Shown: positions 9,384 to 51,883 of the stretch, piece after piece
Layout of the letters: every line of letters begins with the position of its first letter
Numbering within the stretch: position 1 is the stretch's first letter
DNA from: Tillus elongatus
Lineage: Eukaryota > Arthropoda > Insecta > Coleoptera > Cleridae
Assembly: GCA_964006375.1 (NCBI GenBank)
Contig: OZ023269.1
Span: forward strand, 66,481,029 to 66,545,028
Direction of reading: 5' to 3'
DNA: 64,000 bases
Made by a program: the position numbers and the translations under genes
Notes under the pieces: generated by a model
Database searches by the model: none
Told to the model about the DNA's origin: nothing
Seen by the model: the letters and a program-made list of their open reading frames with translations, nothing else

Positions 9384-9940
9384 AGTAGGTATAGATGGCG
9401 AGTTCTAAGACAAAACCCACTAACCTGAGATGACGTCCAAGATGGCGGCCGTCGAGCGCAAAAATTAAAAAATTGAAAATTTGAATCGATATTTGATCTA
9501 ACTTGTCTAAATAAGAAGACCTGTCATTTTGATTTTTGTAAAAATGAGGTATGTAAAGATGGCGGTTGGTGCATGCGCAAACCAACTTTTTTTATTGAGC
9601 GGTGTAAAGGCATAGTATTTTGTGACATGGTAGTCGTCTCGGTGAGTAGAATTCAAAAATAGCATCGGCCGCCGCCGGAGGCGGCTGCTGGGCTCGCTGA
9701 GGGCTGCGCAAACCAACTTTCTTATTAAGCGGTGAAGAGGTATGAGGTTTGGTGTCATAGTAATCGTCTCGAAGAGTAGAATTCAAATATGGCGCCTAGC
9801 GCATGCGCAAACCTAACTTTCTAAATTTCGGCTTAGATGCTCGGTGTTTGGTGTCATGTTTCTCGACCTGATTTATAATATAACATCGGAGTAAACAAAC
9901 AGCTGACGTTGCGGGTTTGCAAGTCTGAGCACGCTCGTTA
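9384..9940 (+). repeat. Left terminal inverted repeat of the Polinton
   Basis: Matches the reverse complement of 51245-51883, with about 75 bp fewer near the outer end. Inside are three diverged direct repeats of about 110-130 bp, each carrying a GCATGCGCAAACC or GCTGCGCAAACC word followed by AACTTTC and GGTGTCATG-like words, plus a GC-rich CCGCCGCCGGAGGCGGC stretch. Similarity to the right TIR ends near TTTGCAAGTCTGA at about 9935. Confidence 0.92.
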
Positions 9941-9967
9941 TAGAAATTGCCAGCAAACTCTACATGA

Positions 9968-9975
9968 TATAAAAG
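9968..9975 (+). promoter_or_regulatory. Candidate TATA box inside the left TIR
   Basis: TATAAAAG lies just inside the TIR. About 45 bp downstream is an ATG at 10019 that is immediately followed by a stop, so the gene it may have served is gone or begins further downstream. Low confidence. Confidence 0.3.
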
Positions 9976-10286
9976 GGCCATCTGTTTTATCGAATTTGTT
10001 CGTATATTCGATAAGAAACCATGTAAAAAAGACAAATATAAGCAAAGTAGCGTACAATTTAATGTATTTTAGGCATACATGTTAAAGAGCTAATTCAATT
10101 ACCGTGATTTTTGAAACGGATAAATGGCCAGCCCATTTAATCATAATTACAGTTGAAACATTAGTATAGAGTCGTGTAAAAGAATAATGCCTATGCCTCA
10201 GCACAGTGGCAACCAAATTAAAGTTCTCGAAAATATATTGCCTAAATAAAGTAGTGATCAAGTAGTTAAAGAAGTAAAAAAAACTC

Positions 10287-10597
10287 TGGACGCAGCAAGT
10301 GCGTTATGGTAGTGAATTTTCATAAAACTATTTTTTAATAGCAATAATGTGTTTTTTTTAAGAAAGCAGGCATCACATTTGGTTACCAGTATAATCTATA
10401 TAGTAAAAACAATGTGCCATGTTTCATCAAAATAACTTTATTGTTTGAAAATGTACAAAAATTTCCGAAAGTTAACTTAAAGTGTTCCCGAAAAAACTCG
10501 TTTCTTGGTCAACTTTATAGGTTAATAGCAAATTGAGCTATTCAAATATTTAGCATTTGATCAAAATTCGCTACCATAACGCACTTACTGCGTCCAG
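10287..10597. mobile_element. Palindromic MITE (311 bp)
   Basis: Terminal inverted repeats of 27 bp with one mismatch: CTGGACGCAG then AAGTGCGTTATGGTAG at left, mirrored at right by CTACCATAACGCACTT then CTGCGTCCAG. The inner part continues GTGAATTTTCATA. No coding capacity. The same AAGTGCGTTATGGTAGTG word begins the repeat inserted in J1 near 15405. Confidence 0.85.
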
Positions 10598-11061
10598 AAT
10601 TTTATTTCTTACAAACATGTATTATATTTCGATGGAAAATGCAAAAATGCAATAACATAAGGCGTGTTTGATTAAAAAAAAAGAAAATTTGTATCACCAA
10701 CGACTTATGGGCCACCCTGTGATTGTAGAAATAATTTTTTAAGATGTAGCTCAAGACACCCTATAATTAATATATACAATTTTTTTTCATATCTTGTATA
10801 ATAACAGATATATTGAGCTTTATTGATTTTTTTTACGAAAATTCTACAAAAATTATATACCATTAACGATAAACTCTATAGCTAAGAGTACTGCCAAGCG
10901 TCAGAGAAAGGGTATATTTGAAATGAATTTTCTGGAAACATTTTATTAAAATGAAGGACAATGACGGTTGAAACCAAGACATCAGGGCTTGTAAAACATT
11001 CTTCTTGAGACATTTTATTTCCATAGCCCGTATTAGATTCAAGTTCTTTTCCTAAATGTTG

Positions 11062-11975
11062 CCAATTTTGACGTTTAAATCGCAACTTTGACGTTTTGTG
11101 AAAAACCCCAATTTATTTTTGTTTAAATGCCTATAACTTTTTTGTCTTTTGACCTACAGAGCTAAATTTTCGTAGGTAGCTTGCCTATAATGATATAAAC
11201 CCGCGTATAAAATTTGGTTGCCCTTACTTTCTTAATTTTGGAGATATAATTTTTTTTCGAAAGAAAACTCAAAATTTTTCGGGAAAACCGCGGCGGATTT
11301 TCCTGGCTAACGAACCTATCCAAGCCACTTGCGAAAGGAAGGTACTCACCAATTTTGAGGTTTAAAATCGGAATTTTGACGTTTTGAGAAGAACCCAAAT
11401 TTATTTTTCTTTAAATGCCTGTAACTTTTTTGTCCTTCAACCTACGGAGCTAAATTTTGGTATGTAACTTGCCTATAATGATATAAACTCGCGTATGAAA
11501 TTTGGTTGCCCTTCCTTTGATAATTTTGAAAATATAAAAAAATCGATTTTTTTCGAAAGAAAACACAAAATTTTCCGGGAAAACCTTGGCGGATTTTCCT
11601 AGCTAACGAACTTGTCCAAGCCACTTGCGAAAGGAAGGTACTCACCAAGTTTTATCAAAATCGGTCCATTATTTTTTAAGTTATAGGTGTGACATATATA
11701 TATATATATATATATATATATATATATATATATATATATATATATATATATATATATATATATATATATATATATATATATATATATATATATATATATA
11801 TATATATATATATATATATAAACATATAAAGTCTGAAACTGACCTCGGATTTGGGTTCCGGGGGTCCTAAATAGCGCTCATTTGAAGAATTTTTTTCAAA
11901 ATTCAAAAGTCGGGATCTCCTCATTAGTGAATTTTTTTTAAGAAAATTCACTAAAACGAGCAAACTGTACAGCAA
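11062..11975. repeat. 289-bp tandem duplication with (AT)n core
   Basis: Two direct copies, about 11062-11350 and 11351-11640; GAGCTAAATTTT recurs at about 11159 and 11448. They are followed by (AT)n at 11694-11821 and a tail with CAAAATTCAAAAGTC, GGATCTCC and CATTAGTGAATTTT. The same layout (unit, dinucleotide core, tail) occurs at 15393-15888, so this is one dispersed repeat family, here with its first part doubled. Confidence 0.8.
11694..11821. repeat. (AT)n microsatellite
   Basis: About 128 bp of pure AT dinucleotide forming the core of the dispersed repeat at 11062-11975. Confidence 0.99.
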
Positions 11976-50270: not shown

Positions 50271-50280
50271 CGCGGCAGAA

Positions 50281-50784
50281 TGCTCAGAGAACCATGGCAA
50301 TTACAGAAGGGCAGTAGAAGACGTATAAGAAACATAGTTAGTAAGATCAATAAAATCACAAGTAAATTAGTATTAAGAAATCAATCTAAACTAAAGAATA
50401 AACATTGTAATGATTAGAGGTCAATGTTGTTGAATAACATTGGCATTGATGCTATTGCATTTGTTATGTCAACAAATAAACAAACGCAAATTAGCAAACG
50501 TACAAGGTATCGAAAACTGATGGAATCAGCAGTTAGGAAGGTTGGAAACTGGATAGAATTACTATAAATATTGTTTATTGATATACAACAAAACACTGTT
50601 AACATTAATAGTCAATATGTCCGTATCTACGTAAGTTCTTTAATTCAATTTGTTATATCGTTATTATTATTATTATTAAGTTTTGTGCTTTAATATAGTT
50701 ACCAATATACCGTTATCTATGTCATACATATGTGCTTCGTTCGAAGATTTTATTCCTATAATTAACCTCCGCTTCCCTTCAACA
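50281..50784 (+). repeat. Right LTR of BEL/Pao element
   Basis: 504 bp from TGCTCAGAGAACC to CCCTTCAACA, followed by AATAG and then the Polinton middle ORF on the minus strand. A purine-rich tract before it is poor (CGGCAGAA). Confidence 0.93.
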
Positions 50785-50869
50785 AATAGGTTTCGCTGCC
50801 CCCTTCCTCCTCTTCATAAACTCTCGTTTTTTTGTATTCTTCTGCTTGGCCTCTGTGTAAACTTTAAAA

Positions 50870-51193
50870 ATCTATTGCGATCACTTAGGATTCTCTCCAT
50901 AATAATTTCTATACTGGTATTGGACCTCTTCAGACAAATATTTAAAGAATGGTTTGCTTAAAGGAGCTCTTAGAGAGTATTGAATGTAATACGAAGAACT
51001 GTGTAGAGCAGTAGCCAACTAAGTATACATCACATAATTCAACCAGATGTTTGCTTTGAAAGTCTTCACCTTCTGAATCACGTTCGTCTATATATGCTTT
51101 CTCTTGTATTTTCAACACCAGCAGTTTTAAATCACTCGATTCATTAGATATTCTACTCTTAACTCCATACCACAACTCGCTGCTGTACGACAT
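50870..51193 (-). pseudogene. LWYG-motif protein, copy A, truncated
   Basis: ATG at 51193 (MSYSSELWYGVKSRI), then LLVLKIQEKAYIDERDSEGE and LVELCDVYLVGYCSTQFF, a frameshift near 51005, and a remnant matching APLSEPFFKYLPEE of copy B down to about 50880. There it joins the N-terminal part of the middle ORF through a deletion of about 450 bp relative to 59660-60118. It is the outermost gene of the block, 50 bp from the right TIR. No family recognised. Confidence 0.72.
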
Positions 51194-51244
51194 GTTTCTA
51201 GTTTAACGTCACACCGCAGAATGATTTTTCGATTGCTTCTGTTG

Positions 51245-51883
51245 ACCAGCATGTTCAGACTTGCAAAACCGCAACGTTGGCTGTTTGTTTACTTGAATGT
51301 TATATAATAAATCAGGTGGAGAAACATGACACCAAACACCGAGCATCTAAGCCGAAAACTGAGAAAGTTAAGTTTGCGCATGCGCTAGGCGCCATATTTG
51401 AATTATACACTTCGAGAGGATTACCATGATACCAAACATCATACCTCTACACCGCTTAATAAGAAAGTTGGTTTGCGCAGCCCCCAGCGCCTCCTGCCGC
51501 CGTCTCCGGCGGCGGCCGATGCTATTCTTGAATTATACTCATCGAGACGATTACTACGACACCAAACACTATGCTTCTATACAGCTTAATAAAAAAAGCT
51601 GGTTTGCGCATGTGCCAAATCTTTACATACGTCATTTTTACAAAAATCAAAATGACAGGTCTTCTTATTTAAACAGGTTAGATTAAATCTAGATTCAAAA
51701 TTTAAATTTTTATATTTTTCGCGCTCGACGGCCGCCATCTTGGATGTCATCTTGGATGACGTCATCTCAGGTTAGACCCCTAGTAGTCCTCTACCCAGCC
51801 GCCATCTTGTTACGCCACTGTGACGTCACTGCCCGCATGCGCAGCTCCCGGGTTGGTCTTAGAACTCTCCATCTATTCCTACT
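51245..51883 (-). repeat. Right terminal inverted repeat of the Polinton
   Basis: Reverse-complement match of 9384-9940, again with three GGTTTGCGCA-type units of about 110 bp and the CCGCCGTCTCCGGCGGCGG stretch. It has an extra segment of about 75 bp (about 51776-51850, with TGACGTCACTG and GCATGCGCAGC words) absent from the left TIR. Ends CCATCTATTCCTACT, then TSD AGTGTC. Confidence 0.92.

What the first reader, a model, noticed from the sequence alone, without database searches (positions are those of the whole stretch)
9384..51883. A complete-ended Polinton reconstructed from 42.5 kb of nested debris
The two ends match as inverted repeats (outer AGTAGG words) and share the 6-bp duplication AGTGTC at 9378 and 51884, which ties PolB fragments at 13-25 kb, an integrase at 31 kb, capsid pieces at 32-40 kb and unknown genes at 41-51 kb into one insertion. 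Automated annotation would see unrelated fragments. About 11 kb of original element remains after subtracting younger inserts.
Basis: partly seen in the sequence, partly recalled or inferred. Interest (0 to 1): 0.9.

Follow-up and report, generated by a model that had tools for sequence, protein, structure and literature searches.

The report
Nested fossil of an adintovirus-like element
This stretch of an animal genome holds an old virus-like mobile element of a known kind (Polinton/adintovirus) whose two ends are still recognisable although several younger jumping genes have landed inside it; the core of its DNA-copying enzyme was not found.

Summary
The ends, 9384-9938 and 51245-51883, are inverted repeats (491 identities in 550 aligned columns); both begin AGTAGG and the same 6-mer, AGTGTC, flanks them. 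Inside lie pieces of a double jelly-roll capsid protein (PF21738), integrase-like pieces (rve below cut-off) and a small gene block. A second copy of the capsid side lies inverted at 59.4-62.7 kb, outside the element, with the same gene order. One gene of the block matches, by a low-confidence predicted fold, the MOSUB protein of an insect adintovirus. Best reading: one Polinton/adintovirus insertion, later hit by two LINEs, a copia and a BEL/Pao element (5-bp duplication AATAG) and probably a DNA transposon.

Corrections: 14887-24972 is a LINE with a copia inside, not polymerase; 42209-50784 is the BEL/Pao element, not unknown genes; by my borders up to 13.9 kb remain, not 11. No DNA polymerase family matched in 196 pieces of 9.9-32.5 kb. 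Pieces at 14.0 and 25.2 kb look like a polymerase N-terminus to me, from recall only. A new member of a known kind.

The parts
9378..9383 (.). left copy of the 6-bp target duplication AGTGTC
   Evidence: read; position
9384..9938 (+). left terminal inverted repeat, begins AGTAGG
   Evidence: aligned with the reverse complement of 51245-51883: 491 of 550 aligned columns identical
14038..14544 (+). open piece of 169 aa, paralogous to pieces at 40367-40876; looks like a polymerase N-terminus by recall only
   Evidence: three colinear local matches, summed score 119, 0 of 5000 shuffles; Pfam: only NAF at E 0.035, below cut-off
14887..24972 (+). nested LINE copy, split by later inserts
   Evidence: seven blastn blocks colinear with 36562-39551
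17851..22405 (+). copia element inside that LINE
   Evidence: repeat pieces 17851-17988/22099-22232 and 18494-18676/22225-22405; copia gag PF14223 E 3.5e-28 at 18907-19326
25169..25303 (+). 45-aa piece that looks like polymerase N-terminal sequence, recall only
   Evidence: no Pfam match at E <= 1
26249..30589 (-). probable nested DNA transposon (DUF4806- and DUF4218-like pieces); borders not found
   Evidence: both matches below cut-off: DUF4806 E 0.017, DUF4218 E 0.024
31410..32377 (-). integrase-like pieces, frame broken
   Evidence: rve below cut-off at 31965-32084 (E 0.034); otherwise recall and position
32456..32863 (+). 136-aa piece in front of the capsid gene, possibly the minor capsid protein (position and recall)
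   Evidence: no Pfam family, no PDB match of weight
32845..39746 (+). major capsid gene (double jelly-roll) in pieces: 32845-33405, 35782-36105, 36172-36387, 39546-39746
   Evidence: PF21738 in the first (E 1.4e-8), third (1.5e-13) and fourth (8.6e-9); the second matches copy B by BLAST (35 aa, 89%)
33403..35781 (.). insert in the capsid gene, kind unclear
   Evidence: lies between capsid pieces; 34193-34492 has no Pfam match at E <= 0.01
36389..39561 (+). second nested LINE, in the capsid gene
   Evidence: RVT_1 E 1.5e-36; the blastn blocks to copy B break off at 36388 and resume at 39562
39884..40316 (+). gene X, two pieces, function not known
   Evidence: 59-60% identical to 61543-62049
40367..40876 (-). 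small extra gene, absent from copy B, with weak C2H2 zinc-finger match
   Evidence: 538 bp in A against 26 bp in B between matching blocks; zf-C2H2_14 E 0.0068, below cut-off
40968..41372 (-). small protein with a hydrophobic C-terminal stretch, probably membrane-bound
   Evidence: 66% identical to 60989-61441; hydropathy peak 2.67 at residue 112
41254..42198 (-). MOSUB-like gene, C-terminal and middle pieces (the rest lies beyond the BEL/Pao element)
   Evidence: 57-58% identical to 60046-61020; fold evidence from copy B
42204..50789 (+). BEL/Pao element 42209-50784 with its 5-bp duplication AATAG on both sides
   Evidence: LTRs 491 identities, 13 mismatches; Peptidase_A17 (Pao) E 2.1e-51; flanks printed
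50817..51202 (-). N-terminal piece of the MOSUB-like gene (50817-50957) and the gene nearest the right end (50945-51202)
   Evidence: BLAST matches to 60046-61020 and 59467-59703
51245..51883 (-). right terminal inverted repeat, ends CCTACT
51884..51889 (.). right copy of AGTGTC
   Evidence: read; position
59404..62738 (-). copy B: capsid side of a second element of the same family, inverted, outside the first
   Evidence: four blastn blocks; PF21738 E 2.7e-44 at 62116-62766

Best explanation
A single Polinton/adintovirus-type element was inserted here, most likely by its own integrase (staggered joining duplicated AGTGTC), and then decayed while younger elements landed in it. In life it most likely was a linear double-stranded DNA whose inverted ends served a protein-primed polymerase, whose single strands were bound by the MOSUB-like protein, and which was packed in a double jelly-roll capsid. 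Shown here: the ends, the duplication, the capsid pieces, the gene order shared with a second copy, selection on the shared proteins, and the nested inserts. Inferred from the family: the replication cycle, the integrase step, the role of the MOSUB-like protein. The polymerase core and the packaging ATPase were probably lost by deletion on the left side.
Against: No DNA polymerase family in 196 pieces (97 for the piece at 25.2 kb); no Walker A in the element outside the LINE; no protease family matched. Integrase only below cut-off. The fold model is weak (mean pLDDT 39.6, no residue at 70 or more), the MOSUB match has low TM-scores (0.29 and 0.44, rmsd 12.3), Foldseek on the PDB had none of 604 with E <= 0.001, a profile search gave one chance match. 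No relative was found by sequence in any collection searched. The end word AGTAGG is not two exact AGT repeats.
Confidence: 0.88

Rival explanations
1. The two ends belong to two different insertions of one family, brought together by recombination or deletion, and the AGTGTC match is chance.
For: A second copy of the family lies only 7.5 kb away, so copies can be close; the TIRs differ by K2P 0.116.
Against: Equal 6-mers occurred in only 128 of 200,000 random position pairs; the gene order between the ends fits one element.
Confidence: 0.06
2. The lineage had no polymerase of its own and was copied in trans by a helper.
For: No polymerase family in 196 pieces although capsid pieces of the same element still score well. 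Genomes with adenovirus-class virion proteins and no recognisable PolB or integrase are reported (PMC11071296, passages).
Against: The left side is heavily rearranged by inserts and tandem repeats, so a deletion is simpler; two pieces look like a polymerase N-terminus (recall only); copy B is cut by the window end.
Confidence: 0.05
3. It is an adintovirus-like element in which the 14.0 and 25.2 kb pieces are true polymerase remains.
For: My recall of polymerase N-termini; both pieces are on one strand, before and after the LINE.
Against: No Pfam match for either beyond NAF at E 0.035, no relative found for the first. It differs from the best explanation only in this point.
Confidence: 0.5

Closest known systems
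Insect adintoviruses (Adintoviridae, Orthopolintovirales), e.g. Bos-associated insect adintovirus; Drosophila-associated adintoviruses
   Same: MOSUB-like protein by predicted fold; residue of up to 13.9 kb against 13.3-14.6 kb in the Drosophila-associated ones (PMC8363768, passages); capsid and integrase-like pieces.
   Different: No polymerase core or packaging ATPase found; no similarity by sequence could be shown, since no adintovirus record was in the collections searched.
Polinton/Maverick elements of vertebrates
   Same: Long inverted ends, 6-bp duplication, AGT-type ends, integrase beside a capsid module (PMC8097293, passages).
   Different: End word AGTAGG; a block of genes by the right end (MOSUB-like, membrane protein, end gene) that the passages I read do not describe.

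Membership tests
Polinton/Maverick | terminal inverted repeats | tested here: met
   491 of 550 aligned columns identical
Polinton/Maverick | 6-bp target site duplication | tested here: met
   AGTGTC on both sides
Polinton/Maverick | end motif (AGT)2 or (AG)3, as reported for vertebrate elements (PMC8097293) | tested here: inconclusive
   AGTAGG at both ends; five of six letters fit (AGT)2
Polinton/Maverick and adintovirus | double jelly-roll major capsid protein | tested here: met
   PF21738 in three pieces and in copy B
Polinton/Maverick and adintovirus | retrovirus-like (rve) integrase | tested here: inconclusive
   one of five pieces, below cut-off (E 0.034)
[quoted passage not shown]
   no polymerase family in 196 pieces; the copy is damaged and copy B is cut by the window end, so loss and original absence cannot be told apart
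Polinton/Maverick | FtsK-like packaging ATPase and cysteine protease | tested here: inconclusive
   no Walker A in the element outside the LINE, no such Pfam family; same caveat
Adintovirus | capsid and polymerase recognisable by BLASTp against adintovirus references (definition in PMC11071296) | not testable with these tools
   no adintovirus protein was held in the collections
Insect adintovirus | MOSUB protein (seen in one record; whether it defines the group is not known to me) | tested here: inconclusive
   BFVD E 3.7e-6, probability 1.00, but from a low-confidence model

The most novel reading that the evidence does not exclude
The lineage had lost its own polymerase before it came here and spread as a capsid-and-integrase element copied in trans, keeping two copies of a zinc-finger domain that resembles a polymerase N-terminus (14.0 kb, and free-standing at 40.4-40.9 kb), which could have drawn a helper's polymerase to its ends.
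Probability: 0.05. Interest if true: 0.6.

Novelty: new member of a known kind. Interest (0 to 1): 0.33.

Why it matters
It shows how an old virus-like element can be recognised in what looks like retrotransposon debris: the ends, the duplication and a second copy give the frame, and the divergences of nested parts fit the order of events (TIR 0.116; copia repeat pieces 0.05-0.10 and BEL/Pao LTRs 0.026). It adds two copies of an adintovirus-like family with an extra zinc-finger-like gene present in one and absent from the other. By itself it opens no long-standing question.

Tried and rejected
Lenient motif patterns gave, within the element, one motif-B-like hit (11049, minus) and one motif-C-like hit (32812, minus, opposite the capsid gene), no motif A and no exonuclease motif; the pieces around 11049 have no polymerase match. 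Copy B as a recent local duplicate: rejected, silent sites are much changed (pooled pS 0.63) and replacement sites little (0.21). Unknown genes at 42-51 kb: rejected, BEL/Pao. Fold of gene X: mean pLDDT 36.7, no viral match of 241 with E <= 0.001; nothing concluded. PHROGs gave nothing for ten frames (best E 0.015). PDB sequence searches gave nothing of weight. Borders of the 26.2-30.6 kb element: no convincing inverted ends. TSD of the LINE at 36.4-39.6 kb: no exact one; the blocks to copy B overlap by 11 bp, which fits a worn one. The paralogy of 14038-14544 with the 40.4-40.9 kb pieces: BLASTP at E <= 1e-4 missed it; one of the three pieces alone is unremarkable (33 of 1000 shuffles reach it); the case rests on the sum, order and spacing, and the pieces were picked by eye first.

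Papers: two look-ups were not held (the adintovirus description itself), so definitions come from passages of other papers and search listings. Phrase search on endogenous or nested insect Polintons: no paper, a narrow test.
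Full report
Ends. The 555 bases from 9384 and the reverse complement of 51245-51883 align over their whole length: 491 identities and 59 mismatches in 550 aligned columns and 94 gap columns, most of them sequence found only on the right near its outer end. The best local alignment scored 709; 546 control alignments of the left end with other parts of the window, both orientations, scored at most 33. Both repeats begin AGTAGG, and AGTGTC stands directly outside on both sides. Equal 6-mers occurred in 128 of 200,000 random position pairs in this window.

What lies inside. PF21738, the double jelly-roll-like domain, matches 32845-33405 (E 1.4e-8), 36172-36387 (E 1.5e-13) and 39546-39746 (E 8.6e-9), in profile order and on one strand. 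A fourth piece, 35782-36105, has no Pfam match but matches copy B by BLAST over 35 residues. Integrase: five pieces on the minus strand at 31410-32377; one has an rve match below the cut-off (E 0.034), four have no integrase match. The name rests on position and on recall of Polinton integrases. In vertebrate Mavericks the integrase lies in one module with minor capsid, PW, major capsid and protease genes (PMC8097293, passages), which fits the order here.

A second copy. Four blastn blocks join 35999-51134 with 62738-59404 in inverted order: capsid, gene X, membrane protein, MOSUB-like gene, end gene, in the same relative orientation. Copy B lies outside the first element; its match in the capsid gene ends at 62738, and a DUF7869 frame follows at 63116-64000. 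In six gene pieces pooled pS is 0.63 and pN 0.21, so the two copies diverged while their proteins were under selection; they are two insertions of one family, not a recent local duplicate. The first element has 538 bp between gene X and the membrane protein where copy B has 26 bp. That stretch holds a small minus-strand gene with a weak zinc-finger match (E 0.0068, below cut-off). Three of its pieces match 14038-14544 in the same order and nearly the same spacing (72 and 18 residues against 67 and 18; summed score 119; none of 5000 shuffles reached it). Alone, one of the three is unremarkable (33 of 1000 shuffles), and BLASTP at E <= 1e-4 missed the pair. Zinc-finger genes are mentioned for some adintoviruses (PMC11071296, passages).

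What does not belong. 14887-24972 is one LINE copy in seven blastn blocks colinear with 36562-39551; it is split by later inserts, one of them a copia element with repeat pieces at 17851-18676 and 22099-22405 and a copia gag domain (PF14223 E 3.5e-28). 42209-50784 is a BEL/Pao element (Peptidase_A17 E 2.1e-51) with AATAG on both sides. 26249-30589 has DUF4218- and DUF4806-like pieces, both below cut-off, and is probably a DNA transposon; its borders were not found. 33403-35781 is an insert of unclear kind in the capsid gene. The divergences fit the order of events: TIR 0.116, the two LINEs from each other 0.065-0.090, copia repeat pieces 0.052 and 0.096, BEL/Pao LTRs 0.026.

The polymerase. 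Between 9940 and 32500, 163 stop-to-stop pieces of 30 or more residues lie outside marked repeats. The 116 of 36 or more residues were scanned, the 47 shorter ones, with 33 pieces that overlap the marks around 22.4-25.7 kb: 196 pieces, no DNA polymerase family at E <= 0.05. Other pieces overlapping the LINE, copia and transposase marks, and 23 pieces with long TA repeats, were not scanned. Motif patterns gave two lenient hits in the element, in unfitting places; no Walker A lies in the element outside the LINE. Since the ends differ by only 0.116 and capsid pieces still score well, decay alone should not hide a polymerase core; a deletion on the left side is likelier.

Relatives and print. No relative was found by sequence in viral contigs, genome contigs of prokaryotes, phage records or the protein database; these collections seem poor in animal genomes, so this says little about the family. 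The window's own assembly did not complete for. Endogenous adintovirus sequence is common in at least some arthropods: 453 integrase-derived loci in Ixodes ticks (PMC10675110, passages), and adintoviruses of 13.3-14.6 kb from Drosophila samples (PMC8363768, passages). By my borders up to 13,943 bp of the element remain.

Verdict.

Noticed in passing
59404-64000: Copy B of the same family, inverted, 7.5 kb from the first element; its capsid match ends at 62738 and a DUF7869 frame (E 2.3e-10) follows at 63116-64000. Its outer end and TIR were not found.
   Followed up: partly
40351-40888: 538-bp segment in the first element against 26 bp in copy B, holding a small zinc-finger-like gene paralogous to 14038-14544.
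   Followed up: partly
57133-58925: Array of tandem repeats of about 105-361 bp built on ACAG words, just outside the gene block of copy B; it may belong to the end of copy B.
   Followed up: no
2081-6307: Another LINE on the minus strand (RVT_1 E 1.6e-16), of a different family from the two nested LINEs by their low identity (27-28%).
   Followed up: no
1333-1580, 6591-6717, 11694-11828, 13298-13378, 15711-15797, 27674-27768, 44300-44410, 54020-54256: Eight long, nearly perfect AT/TA repeats, one of them inside the BEL/Pao element.
   Followed up: no
11062-11954 and 15401-15887: A dispersed repeat ending in a TA run, once in the left part of the element and once inside the LINE.
   Followed up: no
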